Positions 2,675 to 9,943 of a stretch of 64,000 nucleotides of DNA are shown piece after piece. The DNA lies in the NCBI RefSeq assembly GCF_014764365.1, contig NZ_CP061718.1, forward strand, positions 4,108,501-4,172,500. The letters are read 5' to 3'. The stretch comes from Roseococcus microcysteis. Lineage in GTDB: Bacteria > Pseudomonadota > Alphaproteobacteria > Acetobacterales > Acetobacteraceae. The position numbers were made by a program, and so were the translations under genes. Numbering within the stretch: the first letter of the stretch is position 1; every line of letters starts with the position of its first letter. Under the pieces are notes generated by a model, which had not been told where the DNA came from, ran no database searches, and saw only the letters and a program-made list of their open reading frames with translations.

Positions 2675-3151
2675 CTAACCGAGTTCCTGGCACGCCAGAT
2701 AGTACACACGGGCAATTTTCTGCTTCTTCGCCTCCATCACGACGGCTTTCAGGGTCGTCACCTGCGTCGCGATGGGAAAGGGGTGGAAGGAGACAGGGTT
2801 GCCCACTTCGAACAACCCGCACGCGTTATGCCCCGCGGGGCTGATCCAGTCCGCGAAATCCGCGGCGTCGTGCGGTCCGCTCAGCCCGTAGTCGATGACG
2901 GATGTCGGCCATGTCTTGCCCTTGTGCCGCTGGGCGTAGGCCGCGGCCTCCTGGTTGCCTGTCAGCTTGTCCCACAGGTCCCAGCCTTGGGCCATGCTCA
3001 GGTTCACCCCCTGCTCGGTATAGGTGACCAGTTCCACGCCGCGCGGGATGCTGAAATTCTCATAGCTCTGCCGCTTCGTGATGGCGAACCTGGAGCCTGA
3101 CCTCACGTCCGAGTAACCGTGACATGAGATGATCCAATTTGGCTGCGGCAT
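2675..3151 (-). CDS. Orphan protein, possible Stv-like adhesin/effector domain
   Basis: A 158-residue protein with no signal peptide or membrane segment. The N-terminus, with SCHGYSD, FSIPRGVELVTYTEQG and a long polar middle, reminds me of the putative Stv adhesin domain often attached to polymorphic toxins, but that is recollection and not a confirmed match. It stands alone: its neighbours are on the same strand but separated by 92 nt and 123 nt. Its base composition is visibly less GC-rich than the surroundings, with many non-GC third positions, which suggests recent acquisition. Function unknown. Confidence 0.6.
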   Translation of the reverse strand: MPQPNWIISCHGYSDVRSGSRFAITKRQSYENFSIPRGVELVTYTEQGVNLSMAQGWDLWDKLTGNQEAAAYAQRHKGKTWPTSVIDYGLSGPHDAADFADWISPAGHNACGLFEVGNPVSFHPFPIATQVTTLKAVVMEAKKQKIARVYYLACQELG

Positions 3152-3243: not shown

Positions 3244-4017
3244 TCAATCCGCGTAGCTCGGGTCGCTGCGGTCCAGCAGCCGCTTCAGCGCCGCGAAGTG
3301 GTATTCGGGGCCGCTCATCGCCATGGTCGGGTCCTTCCAGGCGGCCTGGACGCGCATCTTCTCCAGCACCTCCTCCTTGACGAAGCGGCGGCGGTGGCCG
3401 GTCCACATGGAGAACAGCTGCGTCCGGCAGGCGCGCTCCAGGTAATAGAGGCGGTGATAGGCCTGGGCGACGGAATTTCCCGTCACCACCACGCCGTGGT
3501 TGGCCAGCATCAGGATGGGCTTGCCGTCCATGAGGGCGGCCATGCGCGCCCCTTCCTCATGCTCATGGGCGAAGCCGTTGTAGTCGTAGTCATAGGCGAT
3601 GCGGTTGTGAAACTGCAGGGCGCTCTGCCCCGTCATCTCGATGGTCATGTCCTCCAGCTGCGAGATGGCGGTGCAATAGGGCATGTGGGTGTGCAGCACG
3701 CAGGCCGCGCCCGTGGCTTCATGGATGGGCGCATGGATGCAGATGGCGCTGCGGTCGGCCGGCCCCGTGCCTTCCAGCACCGTGCCGTCGAACGCCACCT
3801 CGATCAGGTTGCTGGCCGTCACCTCCGACCAGTGCAGCCCATAGGCGTTGAGGTAGAACCGACCCGGCCGGCCCGGCACCATCAGGGTGAAGTGGTTGTC
3901 TATGGCCTCGTGGAAGTCATGCAGCACGGCCAGGCGATGGGCGGCGGCCATGTCGATGCGGGCCTGGCGGCGCTGCTCGACATGGATTTCGGCCGCGGGG
4001 TCCTTGACGCTCGACAT
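3244..4017 (-). CDS. Class II aldolase/adducin family protein
   Basis: A 257-residue cytosolic zinc enzyme of the class II aldolase/adducin fold, a family that includes fuculose-phosphate aldolase and decarboxylases. Zinc ligands appear as His109 and His111 in VLHTHMPY and His174 in LMLANHGVVV. The start MSSVKDP at 4017 is preferred over an upstream ATG because the extra 20 residues look like non-coding sequence. The substrate cannot be told from the sequence; members of this particular subgroup often accompany aromatic or TTT-related catabolism genes. It is not tightly linked to its neighbours. Confidence 0.88.
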   Translation of the reverse strand: MSSVKDPAAEIHVEQRRQARIDMAAAHRLAVLHDFHEAIDNHFTLMVPGRPGRFYLNAYGLHWSEVTASNLIEVAFDGTVLEGTGPADRSAICIHAPIHEATGAACVLHTHMPYCTAISQLEDMTIEMTGQSALQFHNRIAYDYDYNGFAHEHEEGARMAALMDGKPILMLANHGVVVTGNSVAQAYHRLYYLERACRTQLFSMWTGHRRRFVKEEVLEKMRVQAAWKDPTMAMSGPEYHFAALKRLLDRSDPSYAD

Positions 4018-4098
4018 GGGGGGCTCCGGTCCGGTGGGGGCGGGGCCCATCAACCCATGTCGGACGGGCGGATGCAAGGCATCAGACGGGGCAGGGCC

Positions 4099-4977
4099 TC
4101 AGGCGGGCGGGAGGCACAGCACATCCTTGTGCGGCACCCGCACGGAAAGCCGCCCCGCCTCGGCCTGCGCGGCGCGGGCCTCCGCCCAGGCCTCGATGCG
4201 CCCGGCCTCGCGGGTTTCGTGGCGCATGGCGGCCTCGGCATGGCCCAGCGCCAATTCGCGCGCCATGGCGCCGGCCTGGCGCGGGATGCGCCAGTCGGTC
4301 GGCGCCGTCAGCACCTGATAGCTCTGGGCCGCGAAGGCGCGGGCGATGGCCGCCGGCGCCTCCACCCCCAGCGCCGGCCCGCCGAAGCCCTTCACCCGCC
4401 GCTGGTCGCGGCCGAAGCCGCGCGCCACCCAGGCATCATCCGGGTGCGGGGGCATGAAACGCTCCCGTCCCGAGACGTTCAGCGCGGCGTAGAAGGGCAG
4501 GCGGTGTTCGGCCAGGGCCGCGGCCAGCGCCTCCACCCAGCGCTCCGACACCAGGTCGCACAGGGCGGAACAGGTCACGGCGTCCACGCGGTCCAGCGGC
4601 AGCCCCTCCGGCGCGCGGGCGAGGTCCGTGAGAATCCCCTCGATGCGCCAGGCGCCGTGCGGCGAGTGCAGCAGCAGCGCCTTCTTCTGCGGCCAGGTGG
4701 CGCGCCAGCCCCAGTCATGGGCGGCCTCCATCATGCTGTCGAAGGCGCGGGACATGAGGTCCGCATCGGCGTCCGCCAGCACCCAGGCATGGGGGCGCTG
4801 GGGCACATGGCCCAGCCAGCGCGTCAGGCTGCCCGTGCCGGCGCCGAGGTCGAGGAAGCGCGGGCGGGCCACCTCGTCCAGGTGCTCCAGCAGGGCTTCG
4901 GCCAGTTCCATGCTGCGCGATTCGGCATCGAAGCCCTCGCGCAGGGAGAGCCAGTCGCCGTCAAAGCTCTCAGCCAT
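4099..4977 (-). CDS. Class I SAM-dependent methyltransferase of the pterin-like cluster
   Basis: A 292-residue Rossmann-fold methyltransferase. Motif I is seen as FLDLGAGTGSLTRWL near residue 38, followed by an acidic AdoMet-binding stretch, VLADADADLM, and a motif IV-like VDAVTCSALCDL. The ATG at 4977 overlaps the glycosyltransferase upstream by 8 bp, so the two are translationally coupled. It is the last gene of a five-gene operon running from 8138 to 4099. Its acceptor is unknown; the neighbours suggest a glycosylated, methylated heterocycle. Confidence 0.85.
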   Translation of the reverse strand: MAESFDGDWLSLREGFDAESRSMELAEALLEHLDEVARPRFLDLGAGTGSLTRWLGHVPQRPHAWVLADADADLMSRAFDSMMEAAHDWGWRATWPQKKALLLHSPHGAWRIEGILTDLARAPEGLPLDRVDAVTCSALCDLVSERWVEALAAALAEHRLPFYAALNVSGRERFMPPHPDDAWVARGFGRDQRRVKGFGGPALGVEAPAAIARAFAAQSYQVLTAPTDWRIPRQAGAMARELALGHAEAAMRHETREAGRIEAWAEARAAQAEAGRLSVRVPHKDVLCLPPA

Positions 4978-6001
4978 GGGGGGCCTCCAGGATGGTGGCG
5001 AGCCTGGCCGCCTGGTCTTCCCAGCGCGGCAGGGCCTGCCCGGCCTTCCAGGCGGCATCCGCCATCTGCGCCCGCAGCGCCGTGTCATAGATGGGCCGGC
5101 GCATGCCCCGCGAGAGGGAGTTGAAATCCCCCGGCGGCGCCAGGATGGCCGAGCCGGGGGCGACCAGATCCGCCACCGCCCCCCCGGTGCAGAGCGCCAT
5201 GGGAAGGCCGCGCGCCTGGGCTTCCGCCACCACCATGCCATAGCCCTCGTAATGGGTTGCGAGCGCGAAGAGGTCGGCCGTGGCGTATTCCGCCTCCAGG
5301 CTGGCGGTGTCGAGCCCGCCCAGGAATTCCACCCGCGCGCCGAGGCCCAGCTCCTCCACCAGCGCCTCCAGGCTGTGCAGGTGAACCGGGTCATGGGCCG
5401 CGCCCACGATGCGCAGCGTCCAGTCCAAATCCGTCAGCCGTTCCAGCGCGCGCAGCAGCACGTCATGCCCCTTGCGCGGGATGATGGAGCCGACCGCCAA
5501 AATCCGGCAGCCCGGCCCGCCCGAGCCCTGGCTGCGTGGCGCGGGGTCCGTGCCGGGCTCCACCACCGACACACGCTCCAGGTCCACGCCAAAGGTGCCG
5601 AGCGTCGTCGCCGTCATGGGCGAGGTGACGACCAGCTTCGCGCAGGCGGCGAAGAGGTCGCGCTCGATAGGCTCCAGCGCCTCCCGGTCCAGCCCCTGTT
5701 CCAGGCTGACCGGGTGATGGATCAGCCCCACCGCGCCGCGCGCCGCCAGCGCATCCCGGTGCGGGGCGAAGGCGGGCAGGCCAAGCCCGTCCACCAGCGC
5801 GACCTCGCCCGCGCGCAGCCCGGAAAGCGCCGCGCCGGCGGCGTCCCGCGCGGCGGCATCGGCCATGGGGTGCGCGCCGGCCAGCTCCACCACGCGCACG
5901 GCATGGCCCCGCGCCCGCAGCCCCTCGACCATGCGACGGTCATAGAGATAGCCGCCCGAGATGGTGTCGAAGGGGGCGGGGACGATCAGCGCGATGTCCA
6001 T
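4970..6001 (-). CDS. Glycosyltransferase family 4 protein of the pterin-like cluster
   Basis: A 343-residue GT-B glycosyltransferase. The N-terminal half starts MDIALIVPAPFDTISGGYLY with the GT4-like nucleotide-free domain. The C-terminal half has ILAVGSIIPRKGHDVLL and the nucleotide-sugar binding motif in ALATHYEGYGMVVAEAQARG. It begins 6 nt after the PTPS-like gene and overlaps the methyltransferase by 8 bp. The sugar and acceptor cannot be read from the sequence. From memory, this GT subgroup is repeatedly found beside RibD-like and PTPS-like genes in Alphaproteobacteria. Confidence 0.88.
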   Translation of the reverse strand: MDIALIVPAPFDTISGGYLYDRRMVEGLRARGHAVRVVELAGAHPMADAAARDAAGAALSGLRAGEVALVDGLGLPAFAPHRDALAARGAVGLIHHPVSLEQGLDREALEPIERDLFAACAKLVVTSPMTATTLGTFGVDLERVSVVEPGTDPAPRSQGSGGPGCRILAVGSIIPRKGHDVLLRALERLTDLDWTLRIVGAAHDPVHLHSLEALVEELGLGARVEFLGGLDTASLEAEYATADLFALATHYEGYGMVVAEAQARGLPMALCTGGAVADLVAPGSAILAPPGDFNSLSRGMRRPIYDTALRAQMADAAWKAGQALPRWEDQAARLATILEAPHG

Positions 6002-6007
6002 GGCTGT

Positions 6008-6412
6008 TCAGCGCTCCACAGGCCCTTCGAAGGCGGCCCAGGCGATATGGCTCTCGCGCAGCAGCACCTTGATGCCCGTCACCCCATCCCCGCCCGGCCC
6101 CATGCGCCCGTCGCGGCAGGCGGCCGCCAGCAGCCCGTGGATGTGCAGGCAGAGATATTCCGTCGTGGTGTTCTTGCCCGCGAAGACCTGTTCCTCGTCG
6201 AGGTTGCGGTAGTCCAGCGCGGAGAGGATCTTCCGCAGCTCATCCTTCGCCAGGCCGATGTCGATCAGCAGGTGCAAGTGGTCGAGCTTGGGCGCGCGGA
6301 ACTCCGCCTCCACCACGAAGGTCGCGCCATGCAGGCGCTGGGCGGGGCCGAACTCCGCGCCGCGGAAGCTGTGCGCGATCATGATGTGGTCCACGACGGT
6401 CAGGCTGAACAT
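6008..6412 (-). CDS. Divergent 6-pyruvoyl-tetrahydropterin synthase / QueD paralogue
   Basis: A 134-residue T-fold protein of the PTPS/QueD family. His14 (IAHSF) and His28 (QRLHGATF) match two of the usual three zinc ligands, but the canonical LHGH is LHGA, so the third ligand is Ala30. The catalytic Cys just before RLHGH is also absent (GPAQRLHG). The C-terminal glutamate survives in LLRESHIAWA, and a subgroup signature YRNLDEE..NTTTEYL is present. This is therefore probably not a classical QueD. It lies 11 nt after the dehydrogenase gene and 6 nt before the glycosyltransferase. Confidence 0.82.
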   Translation of the reverse strand: MFSLTVVDHIMIAHSFRGAEFGPAQRLHGATFVVEAEFRAPKLDHLHLLIDIGLAKDELRKILSALDYRNLDEEQVFAGKNTTTEYLCLHIHGLLAAACRDGRMGPGGDGVTGIKVLLRESHIAWAAFEGPVER

Positions 6413-6423
6413 CGGCAGGCCTT

Positions 6424-7392
6424 TCAGTAGATGACGAGGGGGCAGAGCGGCTGGGCCGCGCCCGGTGGGGGGTCAAGCAAGGCGGTGATGCGCGCGGGAA
6501 GTTGGTCGAAGGGCGTCTCGGGGCCGAGCAGCGCGTCCAGTCGCGCATCGGCCGCCAGCAGGTCCAGCGCCAACGCCATGCGCTGCCCATGGCTGCGCCG
6601 CCCGCGCATGGCGGGGCTGACATGGCCGACCTGGGTGGAGACCAGCCGCAGCCGCTTGTGGTGGAAATCCGCCCCCAGCGGCAGGGCCGGCGTGGCGGCG
6701 CCGAACCAGGAGGCCTCGATGATCCGGGCCTCGAACGCCGCGCGGTTCAGCGCGAGGCACAGCCCCGCCTCGCTGGCCGTCGCGTGGAAGATCAGTTCCT
6801 GTTCACCGGGCGCGTCCTCGGGCGGGGCGAAGCGAGCGCCCAGGCTCTCGGCCAGGGCGGCGCGTGCGGGGTCGCGGTCCACCACCGTCACCTGCACGCC
6901 CGGGATGCGCGCCAGCAGCGCGGCGATCAAGAGCCCCACCACGCCGGCGCCGATCACCATGGCGCGCTCGCCGGGCAAAGGTCCCGCGTCCCAGATGGCG
7001 TTCAGCGCCGTTTCCATATTCGCCCCCAGCACGGCGCGGCGCGTGGGCAGCGCGTCCGGCAGGGGCGCGCAGAGGCCGGCGGGGATGACCAAGCGCGACT
7101 GATGCGGGTGCAGGCAGAACACACGCTGGCCCTGGTGCGGCCCGGCCTCGACCTCGCCCACCAGGCAGTAGCCGTATTTCACGGGGAAGGGGAAATCCCC
7201 CTCCTGCATGGGGCCGCGCATCTGGGTGGCGGCCTCGGGCGGGACGCGGCCGAAATGCACCAGCCGCTCGGTCCCGCGCGAAATCCCCGAGGCCAGGGCG
7301 CGCACCAGGTTTTCGTCCGGCCCGGGTTCGGGGCAGGGGGCGGGGCGCAGCTCGGCCCGGCCCGGCGCCACATGCCAGAACGCCTGCGTCAT
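6424..7392 (-). CDS. MDR-type (zinc alcohol dehydrogenase-like) oxidoreductase without obvious catalytic zinc ligands
   Basis: A 322-residue medium-chain dehydrogenase/reductase. The nucleotide-binding site is VIGAGVVGLLIAALLAR followed by VTVVDRDPAR. The usual zinc Cys after the first beta strand is replaced by SGISRGTERL, and no GHE motif is visible, which recalls BchC-like members. It overlaps the RibD-like gene by 4 bp (ATGA) and precedes the PTPS-like gene by 11 nt. A role in redox modification of a pterin- or pyrimidine-type intermediate is inferred from context only. Confidence 0.82.
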   Translation of the reverse strand: MTQAFWHVAPGRAELRPAPCPEPGPDENLVRALASGISRGTERLVHFGRVPPEAATQMRGPMQEGDFPFPVKYGYCLVGEVEAGPHQGQRVFCLHPHQSRLVIPAGLCAPLPDALPTRRAVLGANMETALNAIWDAGPLPGERAMVIGAGVVGLLIAALLARIPGVQVTVVDRDPARAALAESLGARFAPPEDAPGEQELIFHATASEAGLCLALNRAAFEARIIEASWFGAATPALPLGADFHHKRLRLVSTQVGHVSPAMRGRRSHGQRMALALDLLAADARLDALLGPETPFDQLPARITALLDPPPGAAQPLCPLVIY

Positions 7393-8138
7393 GGCGCGCG
7401 CCGATCCAGCGCGATGTCGAACAGCACGTCGGGCGCGATGTCATGCACATTCCAGCCGAAGCGCATCCCCTGCTCGATGCGGTTCACCTCCGGCAGGGCG
7501 AAGGCCGGGCGGCCGGAGCCCAATATCATGGGCGCCACCGTCACATGCAGCCGGTCGAGGCACCCCGCCGCCAGGAAACGCGAGACGGTCTGCCCGCCCC
7601 CCTCCACGAAGATGCGCGTGAGCCCTCGCGCCGCCAGCGCCCGCAGCAGAGCGGGCAGGTCCAGCCCGCCATCCGCGCCGCGCGCCACGCGCAGCACCTC
7701 GGCCGTGCCGTGCCGCGCCGGCCCGTCCTCGGCCGCGACCAGCAAAGTGGGCGGGCCCTCGCGGAAGATGCCGTAATCGGCGGAAAGCCGGCGCGAGGCG
7801 TCCAGCACCACCCGCACGGGCGAGGGGCCTTCCACCCGCCGCGTGGTCAGGCGCGGGTCATCCTCCCGCACCGTGGCCGCGCCCACCAGCACGGCATGGC
7901 ACAGCGCGCGCAGCCGGTGGGTGTGGCGCAGATCGCCCTCGCCGCCGATCCATTGGCTGTGGCCGCTGCGGGTGGCAATGCGCCCGTCCAGCGTCTGCGC
8001 GAGCCGCCCCACGACCACACAGCCATCGGGCGCCGAAGGGCGGAAGAGGGGCCCGAACAGCCCCGCCATGGCGCCCGCGCGGCCGGGTTCCCCCGCCAGC
8101 AGTGCCTGCCATTCCGCTTCGAACCCGGGGCCATCCAT
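7389..8138 (-). CDS. RibD C-terminal-domain reductase (stand-alone)
   Basis: A 249-residue protein made only of a RibD C-terminal / dihydrofolate-reductase-like domain: VVVGRLAQTLDGRIAT near residue 42, VLVGAATVREDDPRLT near 86, and the NADPH-binding FVEGGGQTVSRFLA near 183. The deaminase half of RibD is missing. In riboflavin synthesis this domain reduces a ribosylaminopyrimidine. Here it heads an operon with PTPS, MDR, GT4 and methyltransferase genes, so a dedicated pathway is more likely than riboflavin synthesis. It starts only 14 nt after the flagellar gene at 8153. Confidence 0.88.
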   Translation of the reverse strand: MDGPGFEAEWQALLAGEPGRAGAMAGLFGPLFRPSAPDGCVVVGRLAQTLDGRIATRSGHSQWIGGEGDLRHTHRLRALCHAVLVGAATVREDDPRLTTRRVEGPSPVRVVLDASRRLSADYGIFREGPPTLLVAAEDGPARHGTAEVLRVARGADGGLDLPALLRALAARGLTRIFVEGGGQTVSRFLAAGCLDRLHVTVAPMILGSGRPAFALPEVNRIEQGMRFGWNVHDIAPDVLFDIALDRRAP

Positions 8139-8152
8139 GCGGCCCGGTTCTG

Positions 8153-8554
8153 TCAGGCCCGCGTCACCACCGCAAGGGCCGCGGCCTGGGCGCCCGGCCG
8201 ATGGCGGCCCTGGCGGCCATAGCCCGGCGCATGGGCCGCGGGGCGGCTGGCCACCGCGATGGTCTCGATCACGCGGGATTGCAGCGCGATGGCCTCCTCC
8301 AGCAATTTCCGGTTCTGCTGGCCGAGCGAGCCGAGGTCGGTCGCCAGGCGTTCCGCCACCTGGCGCAGCCCGCCCTCGGCACGCGCGCCGACCCGGGTGG
8401 CGGCCGCGGTGGCGGCGGCGAAGGCGTCGGTGGCCTGCACCTTGCGCGTGGCCATGGCGGCGGCGCGGGTGAGGTCGAGCGCGGCCAGCGCCTCGTTCTC
8501 GGCGCGAAGGGCCTCGGCGAGGCGCTCCCCGGCGGCGATGACGGCATCCATCAT
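8153..8554 (-). CDS. FlgN-like flagellar protein
   Basis: A 133-residue, mostly helical protein. Its centre, GSLGQQNRKLLEEAIALQSR, resembles FlgN-type export chaperones. The start MMDAV at 8554 overlaps the flgJ-like stop by 4 bp (ATGA), which fixes both the start and membership of the flgI operon. A conserved small gene at this position after flgI-flgJ is usual in Caulobacter-type clusters. The last 30 residues are low complexity. Assignment to FlgN proper is tentative. Confidence 0.6.
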   Translation of the reverse strand: MMDAVIAAGERLAEALRAENEALAALDLTRAAAMATRKVQATDAFAAATAAATRVGARAEGGLRQVAERLATDLGSLGQQNRKLLEEAIALQSRVIETIAVASRPAAHAPGYGRQGRHRPGAQAAALAVVTRA

Positions 8555-8844
8555 GGGCGGTTCTCCTGTGACTGGGCTTGGGTGCGGATCATGTGGGCGA
8601 GGACCATGTCGGCGAGCCCGATGCCCCGCCCGCCGCGCGCGGCGGAAGTGGCGAAGGCCTCGACGAGCATGGGCCGCCATTGCGCCTCGGCGGACCCGCC
8701 GCCGAAGGGGGATTTGTCATTGTGGGCGGCGGCGAAGGCGGGTTGCAGCAGCTGGGCCAGCACCTGGGCCTCGAAGGCCTGGGCCGCCTGCCGCATGCGT
8801 GGGGGCACCTGGGCGGCGGCGGTGGGGGCCATGGGCGTGATCAT
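8551..8844 (-). CDS. flgJ: Rod-binding protein FlgJ-like (N-terminal domain only)
   Basis: A 97-residue protein corresponding to the rod-binding domain of FlgJ, without the muramidase half, as is usual in Alphaproteobacteria. FEAQVLAQLLQPAFA and the C-terminal GIGLADMVLAHMI match the family. It sits between flgI (TGATG overlap at 8844) and the FlgN-like gene (ATGA overlap). It should act in the periplasm during rod assembly. Confidence 0.78.
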   Translation of the reverse strand: MITPMAPTAAAQVPPRMRQAAQAFEAQVLAQLLQPAFAAAHNDKSPFGGGSAEAQWRPMLVEAFATSAARGGRGIGLADMVLAHMIRTQAQSQENRP

Positions 8845-9943
8845 CAGCGGACCTCCAACTCGGCCTGGAGCGCACCCGCCGCGCGGATGGTCTGCAGGAT
8901 GGTGATCAGGTCGCGGGGCCCGACGCCCAGGCTGTTCAGCCCGCGCACCAGCTCCTCCAGCGTCACGCCGCCATCCAGCACGCCCACGCGGCGTTCGCGC
9001 TGGTCATCCACCTCGATCTGGGTGCGGGGCACCACCGCGGTCTCGCCGCCCGCCAGCGGGTTGGGCTGCACCACCTGCGGCGTCTCGGTGATGCGGATGG
9101 TGAGGTTGCCCTGCGCGATGGCCACCGTGGAGACCCGCACATTGGACCCCATGACGATGGTGCCGGACGCCTCCTCGATCACCACCCGCGCCACCTGGTC
9201 GGGGGTGACGCGCAACTGCTCGATGTCGGTGATGAAGGCGACCGGGTCCCGGCTGCCCAGGTTCAGCAGCACGGTGCGCGGGTCGGTGGCCCGCGCCACC
9301 CCCTGGCCCTGGGCGCGGTTGATGGCGGCGGCGATGCGCCGCGCCGTGGTGAAGTCGGGGTTGCGCAAGGCGAGGCGCAGGGTGGGCCGGTTCGCCAGCG
9401 TGAAGGGCACCGCGCGCTCCACGATCGCGCCGGCCGAAATCCGCGCCGAGGTCGGCACGCCGCGCTGCACGCTGCCGCCGGCACCCCGCGCCGCGATGGC
9501 GCCCGTGGCGACGGCGCCCTGGGCCACCGCATAGACCTCGCCATCCGCGCCGAGCAGGGGGTCACCACCAGCATGCCGCCCGTGAGGTTCTGCGCGTCGC
9601 CCAGGGAGGAGATGGCGACATCAATGCGCGAGCCGGGCTGCGCGAAGGCGGGCAAATTGGCCGTCACCATCACGGCCGCGATGTTGCGCGTGTCCAGCCG
9701 CGCCTCATTGTCGCGGGTGTTCACGCCCAGCCGTTCCAGCATCCCCACCAGGGATTGCCGGGTGAAGATGGCGGTGCGGAGCCTGTCGCCGGTGCCGGGC
9801 AGGCCCACCACCAGGCCATAGCCCACCAGCTGGTTGTCGCGCACGCCCTCGACATCCGCGATGTCCTTGATGCGCACGGGCTGGGCGAGCGCCAGGCCCG
9901 GCAGCAGCAGGAGCAGGGCGAGCAAGCCCCCCATCCGCCGCAT
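8844..9943 (-). CDS. flgI: Flagellar P-ring protein FlgI, apparent frameshift
   Basis: FlgI forms the periplasmic P-ring around the rod. The N-terminal part (from 9943) has a signal peptide, MRRMGGLLALLLLLPGLALA, and the signature VRDNQLVGYGLVVGLPGTGD. The C-terminal part in another frame ends with the conserved TLEELVRGLNSLGVGPRDLI. The frames break after LTGGMLVVTP at a five-base run (plus-strand G run 9557-9561). Adding one base restores LLGADGEVYAVAQGAVATG, as expected in the family. It is the first gene of the flgI-flgJ-flgN operon and has a sigma-54 type promoter at 10039-10053. Confidence 0.92.

What the first reader, a model, noticed from the sequence alone, without database searches (positions are those of the whole stretch)
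4099..8138. Five-gene operon for an unknown pterin- or deazapurine-like glycoside
RibD-like reductase, MDR dehydrogenase, PTPS/QueD paralogue, GT4 glycosyltransferase and SAM methyltransferase are packed with overlaps or gaps of no more than 11 nt. Seen: the order, spacing and motifs. Known: RibD-C reduces GTP-derived pyrimidines, and PTPS acts on GTP-derived dihydroneopterin triphosphate. Inferred: a GTP-derived heterocycle is reduced, glycosylated and methylated. GTP cyclohydrolase is missing and must be supplied elsewhere. I recall similar gene sets in other Alphaproteobacteria without an assigned product.
Basis: partly seen in the sequence, partly recalled or inferred. Interest (0 to 1): 0.78.

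Follow-up and report, generated by a model that had tools for sequence, protein, structure and literature searches.

The report
Orphan GTP-to-glycoside biosynthesis gene cassette
Five side-by-side genes form a cassette, also found in very different bacteria, that probably turns GTP into an unidentified sugar-bearing, pterin-like small molecule; a close relative of one of its proteins has a solved structure but no known job, and its gene neighbours now suggest where the pathway starts.

Summary
Confirmed: five minus-strand genes (RibD_C reductase, BchC-like MDR dehydrogenase, PTPS paralogue, GT4, class I methyltransferase; 4099-8138), overlaps or gaps of at most 11 nt.

It belongs to a described orphan group. 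The PTPS bears the published PTPS-IV signature FGPAQ; its closest solved relative is SCO6650 (3d7j, E 4e-60). A zinc histidine and the catalytic cysteine of QueD are replaced in 44 of 44 rows: it is not QueD.

The subfamily is in 45 of 385 alphaproteobacterial genomes and in other phyla. All five genes share 30 of 44 sampled loci.

New here: GTP cyclohydrolase II lies beside it in 44 of 125 loci. A creatininase-family gene lies beside GCH II that lost Tyr105 (14 of 14) or Glu53 (8 of 18), not canonical GCH II (0 of 20). This suggests a FAPy-plus-deformylase start towards DARoPP, on only 2-3 independent contrasts.

CDP-alcohol phosphatidyltransferase (44 of 125) and flippase-like neighbours hint at a membrane-linked product. 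Product, PTPS-IV reaction and sugar are unknown. "Pterin-like glycoside" is plausible; "deazapurine" is not supported.

The parts
7389..8138 (-). RibD_C-type reductase without a deaminase domain; likely reduces the ribose of a GTP-derived diaminopyrimidine
   Evidence: Pfam RibD_C E 1.8e-45; best solved relative 6p8c, 2,5-diamino-6-ribosylamino-4(3H)-pyrimidinone 5'-phosphate reductase, E 9.5e-29; homologue in 35 of 44 sampled loci
6424..7392 (-). MDR-family dehydrogenase, BchC-like; the usual zinc-ADH ligand motifs (recalled) are not seen
   Evidence: TIGR01202 bchC E 8.8e-13, below its cut-off; bchC matched by 37 of 37 alignment members; invariant columns; 43 of 44 loci
6008..6412 (-). PTPS-IV (SCO6650-type) T-fold protein: one zinc His and the catalytic Cys and His replaced, anchoring glutamate kept
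   Evidence: PF01242 E 1.5e-19; alignment A1, 44 rows; PDB 3d7j E 3.9e-60; the only PF01242 match in the genome
6338..6352 (-). FGPAQ signature of PTPS-IV (residues 21-25)
   Evidence: F21 G22 P23 A24 invariant, Q25 at 90% or more; signature named in PMC5445326
6323..6331 (-). His-Gly-Ala (residues 28-30) in place of the His-Gly-His of QueD/PTPS
   Evidence: Ala in 44 of 44 rows at the position of QueD His33
4970..6001 (-). GT4 glycosyltransferase; donor and acceptor unknown
   Evidence: Glycos_transf_1 E 7.6e-26; PDB relatives include phosphatidylinositol monomannoside mannosyltransferase and inositol 3-phosphate glycosyltransferase; 42 of 44 loci
4099..4977 (-). class I SAM-dependent methyltransferase of a family without a specific model
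   Evidence: weak Pfam methyltransferase matches below cut-off; AlphaFold2 pLDDT 96.6; Foldseek best 3mgg E 2e-10; 38 of 44 loci

Best explanation
The operon is the core of a PTPS-IV (SCO6650-type) pathway that starts from GTP through GTP cyclohydrolase II rather than FolE. Proposed route: (1) GCH II, in this genome encoded elsewhere, makes 2,5-diamino-6-ribosylamino-4(3H)-pyrimidinone 5'-phosphate (DARoPP), in some relatives through its formyl form (FAPy) plus a creatininase-family formamidase; (2) the RibD_C enzyme reduces the ribose to a ribityl chain, keeping the 2-amino group because no deaminase domain is present; (3) the BchC-like MDR oxidises a side-chain hydroxyl, and PTPS-IV, without the full zinc site, binds the 2-amino-4-oxo ring and helps cyclise or remodel it to a pterin-like product; (4) GT4 adds a sugar and the methyltransferase a methyl group. 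Shown by computation: gene order, conservation, loss of zinc and triad residues, GCH II and creatininase neighbours. Inferred: every chemical step, above all 3 and 4.
For: Cassette conserved: all five genes in 30 of 44 loci, 19 family-level groups, and in other phyla. GCH II beside it in 17 of 44 sampled alphaproteobacterial loci against 1 of 40 control stretches, and in 44 of 125 loci overall. GCH II residue state goes with creatininase: Tyr105 lost 14 of 14, Glu53 lost 8 of 18, canonical 0 of 20. A creatininase-family formamidase acting on FAPy is published (PMC9478397). RibD_C's best solved relative is a DARoPP reductase. PTPS-IV keeps the counterparts of QueD Asp54, Glu86 and Glu110 in 44 of 44 rows. 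The own genome holds a canonical stand-alone GCH II related to the cluster-linked ones. Palleronia has ribA-MDR-PTPS-MT-RibD on one strand.
Against: No product, substrate or activity was tested. Neither the window nor the 43 loci of its closest relatives (L076-L117, L121) has GCH II or creatininase nearby. The residue/creatininase link rests on 3 state changes in the GCH II tree, 2-3 independent contrasts, in which creatininase followed in only 1.3 of 2 on average; the Glu53 part was noticed after looking, and the plasmid set gave 0 of 6 for it. RibD_C is absent beside 10 of the 12 contig loci with Tyr105-less GCH II. GT4 is absent from one Rhodobacteraceae plasmid stretch and displaced in Palleronia, so glycosylation may not be universal. 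Three Streptomyces plasmids carry PTPS-IV without the other genes.
Confidence: 0.5

Rival explanations
1. The cassette makes a modified flavin: GCH II, creatininase and RibD_C feed riboflavin synthesis, and GT4 and the methyltransferase decorate a secreted flavin.
For: GCH II and RibD_C are riboflavin-branch families; creatininase-family BrbF is a riboflavin enzyme in Sinorhizobium.
Against: No deaminase domain in the RibD_C protein; the most conserved members, MDR and PTPS-IV, have no known role in riboflavin synthesis; none of the ten neighbour families that I scanned is RibB, RibH or RibE, although I did not search for these with models.
Confidence: 0.14
2. A lipid pathway: the GTP-derived alcohol is joined to a phospholipid by the CDP-alcohol phosphatidyltransferase and flipped, giving a pterin or pyrimidine glycolipid.
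For: CDP-alcohol phosphatidyltransferase in 44 of 125 loci (family; motif residues invariant in the 16 aligned), 15 of 44 against 0 of 40 controls; LPG_synthase_TM flippase-like gene in 28 of 28 actinobacterial loci and in rhizobial plasmid clusters.
Against: Neither gene lies near the window operon or in the 43 loci of its closest relatives, and the flippase-like gene is in 0 of 44 sampled alphaproteobacterial loci. The families were picked because they recur, so the control flatters them.
Confidence: 0.18
3. Deazaflavin F420 synthesis, the role that PMC5041015 assigns (unpublished) to PTPS-IV.
For: That sentence; a RibD-branch pyrimidine is an F420 precursor (recalled).
Against: CofH absent from the window's genome and over cut-off in only 7 of 35 carriers. 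The two papers may use 'PTPS-IV' for different groups.
Confidence: 0.04
4. The PTPS is the QueD of this genome, within queuosine or deazapurine synthesis.
For: The genome has QueC and no other PTPS.
Against: A zinc His and the Cys replaced in 44 of 44 rows. Of 60 family genomes, 4 of 28 PTPS-IV carriers lack QueC and 6 genomes have QueC without any PTPS (some are incomplete drafts). TIGR03367 cut-off not reached (38.7 against 89.25 bits).
Confidence: 0.03

Closest known systems
SCO6650 of Streptomyces coelicolor (PDB 3d7j), PTPS homologue of unknown function
   Same: Profile match over the full length, E 3.9e-60; same FGPAQ and HGA motifs in the printed alignment. Recalled, not read (look-up failed): the 2008 structure paper reports no zinc, no triad, no PTPS activity.
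   Different: Different phylum; I did not see the S. coelicolor neighbourhood itself. In 28 actinobacterial loci the flippase-like gene (28) and GCH II (23) are close by; in the window they are not.
PTPS-IV group of the PTPS/QueD family (PMC5445326, passages read)
   Same: FGPAQ signature; neighbours PF00925 and PF01872.
   Different: That paper calls PF00925 'GTP cyclohydrolase I' including FolE2; it is the GCH II family. The passages that I read name neither the MDR, GT4, MT, creatininase nor CDP-alcohol genes.
BrbF formamidase of Sinorhizobium (PMC9478397; abstract, passages, Discussion and one Results section read)
   Same: Creatininase-family enzyme that turns FAPy into DARoPP; the cluster creatininases would do this step.
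   Different: The two cluster creatininases tested fall below the ArfB model's cut-off and score best with MftE. The paper has no FAPy-forming enzyme; the cluster GCH II variants are candidates for such an activity.
Pteridine glycosyltransferase of Chlorobium (start of abstract in listing) and cyanobacterial pterin glycosides (passages of PMC13259868)
   Same: Would end in a glycosylated pterin.
   Different: There tetrahydrobiopterin is glycosylated; its FolE/PTPS origin is recalled. Here the start is probably GCH II.

Membership tests
PTPS-IV / SCO6650-type | FGPAQ signature | tested here: met
   F, G, P, A invariant and Q at 90% or more in 44 rows
PTPS-IV / SCO6650-type | a zinc His and catalytic Cys and His replaced, anchoring Glu kept (recalled for 3d7j) | tested here: met
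   Ala for His33 and Phe for Cys27 in 44 of 44, Tyr/Phe for His71 in 43 of 44, Glu110 in 44 of 44; two zinc histidines (window H14, H28) are kept
PTPS-IV / SCO6650-type | no PTPS activity | not testable with these tools
   recalled for SCO6650 only
QueD (PTPS-I) | CxxxHGH motif and TIGR03367 cut-off | tested here: not met
   HGA, no Cys; 38.7 against 89.25 bits
QueD (PTPS-I) | co-occurrence with QueC | tested here: not met
   4 of 28 PTPS-IV carriers without QueC; 27 of 32 non-carriers with QueC
F420 biosynthesis | CofH/FbiC in the same genome | tested here: not met
   0 in own genome; 7 of 35 carriers over cut-off
RibD (bifunctional) | N-terminal deaminase domain and TIGR00326 cut-off | tested here: not met
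   only RibD_C found; 119.3 against 156.35 bits
DARoPP reductase (archaeal type, TIGR01508) | model cut-off | tested here: not met
   117 against 186.45 bits; still the best solved relative is such a reductase
BchC | TIGR01202 cut-off | tested here: not met
   48 against 291.25 bits
BrbF/ArfB formamidase (neighbour in relatives) | NF033501 cut-off | tested here: not met
   34.2 and 31.3 against 180 bits for the two tested; function inferred from linkage with GCH II variants only
FAPy-forming GCH II (SCO6655-type, recalled) | Tyr105 replaced | tested here: not met
   Own GCH II keeps Tyr105 and Glu53; Met or His in 14 actinobacterial relatives

The most novel reading that the evidence does not exclude
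A widespread, unrecognised cofactor-like or envelope metabolite: a reduced pterin made from the riboflavin-branch pyrimidine DARoPP without GTP cyclohydrolase I, glycosylated and methylated, and in many lineages coupled to a phospholipid by a dedicated CDP-alcohol phosphatidyltransferase and flipped across the membrane. PTPS-IV carries out a new T-fold reaction without the usual zinc site. Two GCH II lineages independently became FAPy-forming (Tyr105 or Glu53 lost), each joined by a creatininase-family deformylase; the Glu53 type is a candidate for the missing enzyme that PMC9478397 calls BrbG.
Probability: 0.15. Interest if true: 0.87.

Novelty: new member of a known kind. Interest (0 to 1): 0.6.

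Why it matters
A relative of a protein crystallised without a known job (SCO6650, 3d7j) belongs to a cassette held in many bacterial lineages, including genomes of 1.4-1.6 Mb, so its product is probably useful rather than decorative. The GCH II/creatininase pattern proposes the first two steps, and with them a concrete labelled-precursor experiment. It also offers candidates for the FAPy-forming GTP cyclohydrolase that the BrbF authors could not find.

Tried and rejected
Class II aldolase (3244-4077) as a sixth gene: rejected; no homologue in the 44 sampled stretches at E up to 1e-4. QueD role: rejected. F420 role: rejected for this genome. Stand-alone GCH II as a genome-wide marker of the cassette: inconclusive, 29 of 35 carriers (35 of the 45 were searched) against 15 of 40 non-carriers at 150 bits or more, a cut chosen after seeing the lists, with many small genomes among the non-carriers. 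Creatininase anywhere in the genome: not informative, 31 of 35 carriers have the family. Viral contigs: none of 3 candidate stretches encodes a relative.

Limits of the counts. The 40 control stretches were picked by hand at round positions, not drawn at random; two lie on cluster contigs more than 11 kb from the PTPS, and one holds a creatininase already listed. Several of the 44 sampled stretches are cut by contig ends, so genes missing there may lie beyond the end. The 80 contig loci are the best of at least 587, not a random sample. L033 was left out of the PTPS alignment because its match is partial.

Correction on the way: my own simple gene caller missed creatininase genes, giving 12 of 24 against 0 of 20. 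tblastn gave 20 of 24 against 0 of 20 (Fisher p 6e-9). The tree shows that this p-value overstates the evidence: only 2-3 independent contrasts, sign test not significant; the two residue columns were not taken out of that tree. The plasmid loci (17 of 20 hits fetched: H1, H3-H7, H9-H13, H15-H20), looked at afterwards as an outside test, held eight GCH II genes: 2 of 2 Tyr105-less ones with creatininase, 0 of 6 Glu53-less ones; no canonical GCH II was among them.

Papers: I found no product for the cassette in print, in an open-licence library only, by searches. Subscription journals are mostly absent. The two Spoonamore papers (2006, 2008) are recalled, not read.
Full report
Observation. All are on the minus strand: RibD_C 7389-8138, MDR 6424-7392, PTPS 6008-6412, GT4 4970-6001, methyltransferase 4099-4977. 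Junctions are -4, +11, +6 and -8 nt. Pfam and NCBIfam support RibD_C, PTPS and GT4 clearly. The MDR matches BchC best but far below cut-off (48 of 291 bits), and BchC matches 37 of 37 members of its alignment, window included. The methyltransferase has only weak family matches. Its AlphaFold2 model from 36 sequences is confident (pLDDT 96.6), and Foldseek finds class I methyltransferases (best 3mgg, E 2e-10).

Host and spread. The window lies in a 4.2-Mb genome. Its PTPS is 100% identical over 133 aa to that of Roseococcus thiosulfatophilus RB-3, so it is probably that species or a near one. The PTPS subfamily is in 45 of 385 alphaproteobacterial genomes, own included, and in 28 of 60 genomes of the window's family, own included. 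The best 80 kept include Micromonospora, Streptomyces, Actinoplanes, Amycolatopsis, Marinobacter, Thauera and assemblies titled Gemmatimonadota and Acidobacteria.

Do the genes travel together? I fetched neighbourhoods for 44 of the 45 class-level carriers; the forty-fifth is the window's own genome. They span 23 family-level and 33 genus-level groups. By tblastn over 60 bits: MDR in 43, GT4 in 42, MT in 38, RibD_C in 35, all five in 30 of 44 (19 groups); in the 80 contig loci all five in 53. Forty hand-picked 17-kb stretches of carrier genomes gave MDR 0, GT4 2, MT 1, RibD_C 1. RibD_C is either upstream on the same strand (as here) or downstream on the other strand. Exceptions: in L043 the MDR lies 2.3 kb away on the other strand and the rest is absent, and three Streptomyces plasmids have PTPS-IV without any of the other genes.

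What the PTPS is. In an alignment of 44 sequences and against E. coli QueD, the residues at QueD His33 (zinc) and Cys27 (catalytic) are Ala and Phe in 44 of 44 rows. His71 is Tyr or Phe in 43 of 44, and Asp70 is kept in 5. Asp54, Glu86 and Glu110 are kept in 44 of 44. The other two zinc histidines survive (window residues H14 and H28 are invariant). The closest solved structure is SCO6650, 3d7j, E 3.9e-60, against 2e-8 for the next. From memory, the 2008 paper on 3d7j reported the lack of zinc and triad and no PTPS activity; I could not read it. The FGPAQ motif is given as the PTPS-IV signature in PMC5445326, which also reports PF00925 and PF01872 as neighbours (passages). PMC5041015 says PTPS-IV acts in F420 synthesis, unpublished (passage). 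The two statements may concern different groups. CofH is absent from the window's genome and over cut-off in 7 of the 35 carriers searched.

It is not QueD. The window's genome has QueC and no other PTPS, which could suggest a substitute QueD. But of 60 genomes of its family, 4 of 28 PTPS-IV carriers have no QueC (E up to 1e-20), and 6 genomes have QueC with no PF01242 match at all. Some of these are incomplete drafts, but one of the four is a single contig at 98% completeness and one of the six is rated 100% complete. The two genes are dissociated both ways. How those genomes make queuosine precursors is a separate puzzle.

Where the pathway starts. GCH II lies in 44 of 125 neighbourhoods (window included, which has none) and a creatininase-family gene in 24 of 125. 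In the 44 sampled loci GCH II is found in 17 against 1 of 40 controls, and creatininase in 8 against 1 (the creatininase difference is slight, p 0.03). I aligned the 44 GCH II proteins to E. coli RibA. I looked at Tyr105 because I recalled that SCO6655, with Met there, makes FAPy. Of the 52 sequences that include eight from plasmids, 14 have Met or His at 105, and all 14 have a creatininase nearby. Another 18 have lost Glu53, next to the zinc Cys54 (Ala, Ser or Cys), and 8 of these have a creatininase nearby. Of 20 with both residues, none has one. Two of the four exceptions in the first set (L042, L073) lie in genomes with creatininases elsewhere, but so do most carriers; the genomes of the other two were not searched for it. 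On the tree there are 3 changes in GCH II state and 3 in creatininase presence, giving 2-3 independent contrasts, in which creatininase went the same way in 1.3 of 2 on average and never the other way. The pattern is therefore consistent but statistically thin. The Glu53 rule was noticed after the fact, and the plasmid set did not add to it (0 of 6 with local creatininase). A creatininase-family enzyme that deformylates FAPy to DARoPP has been shown in Sinorhizobium, and its authors state that the FAPy-forming enzyme is yet to be discovered (Discussion read). The two cluster creatininases that I tested score best with MftE and below cut-off with ArfB, so their role rests on linkage.

In the window's genome no GCH II is near the operon. 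A second, stand-alone GCH II lies at C1:3.51 Mb, with Tyr105 and Glu53, 48-51% identical over about 370 aa to cluster-linked copies; the separate RibBA-like copy scores far lower with the same queries. Such a gene is also common in genomes without the cassette, so this is permissive, not diagnostic.

Further neighbours. CDP-alcohol phosphatidyltransferase is in 44 of 125 loci; the charged residues of its motif are invariant in the 16 aligned. An LPG_synthase_TM flippase-like protein is in 28 of 28 actinobacterial loci, 4 of 9 other distant loci and 0 of 44 sampled alphaproteobacterial loci, but in five rhizobial plasmid clusters. In the alphaproteobacterial sample there are also YceI (12 of 44), an MdoH-like glucosyltransferase (10), cytochrome b561 (9), an FkbM methyltransferase (6) and a sulfatase-like protein (5), against 0 of 40 controls each. 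These families were chosen because they recur, so the comparison favours them. Together they point to the envelope in many lineages. The CDP-alcohol and flippase-like genes are not near the window operon.

Most likely mechanism. GTP to DARoPP by GCH II (directly, or through FAPy and a formamidase), reduction to the ribityl form by RibD_C, oxidation by the MDR and ring closure or remodelling with PTPS-IV to a pterin-like compound, then glycosylation and methylation. The order of the last steps, the sugar and the methyl acceptor are unknown. I put about 0.75 on a GCH II-derived pyrimidine as entry, about 0.5 on the whole outline.

Novelty. The PTPS-IV group, its signature and two neighbours are in print, and a structure exists. 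What I did not find in the open literature is the full cassette, its spread over phyla, the GCH II residue/creatininase pattern, and the lipid-type neighbours. The window is a new member of this known orphan kind.

Noticed in passing
window 3244-4077 (-): Class II aldolase/adducin protein directly downstream of the operon; 35 related loci carry a sugar-acid-kinase-like family there and 31 an aldolase-like family (families F6 and F8, named by eye, not tested), so the spot is variable.
   Followed up: partly
window 8153-9527 (-): The operon follows flagellar flgI/flgJ-like genes (named by eye, not tested), an arrangement shared by 28 loci, window included (families F10-F12).
   Followed up: partly
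genome G000 C1:730122-730772, and family genomes G390, G391, G396, G415, G424, G439: QueC present although no canonical QueD-type PTPS is found; the six relatives have no PF01242 match at all. The step before QueE may be done by another enzyme.
   Followed up: partly
L237, L239, L247: Three Streptomyces plasmids carry PTPS-IV alone, near a BTAD regulator, sigma-70 factor, cupin, MBL-fold and (two of three) MEKHLA genes: a second recurring context for PTPS-IV.
   Followed up: no
L181:71-871: A response-regulator-like gene (named by eye) lies head to head with the stand-alone GCH II of the window's genome; a response-regulator-like family also sits near the cassette in 10 loci (F22).
   Followed up: no
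L244: A cassette with CDP-alcohol phosphatidyltransferase, MDR, PTPS, GT4, MT, flippase-like gene and RibD lies on a 59-kb plasmid of Microbacterium predicted to be mobilizable.
   Followed up: no
window 2675-3151 (-): Small protein matching the Pfam 'Putative adhesin Stv domain' (E 7.5e-7).
   Followed up: no
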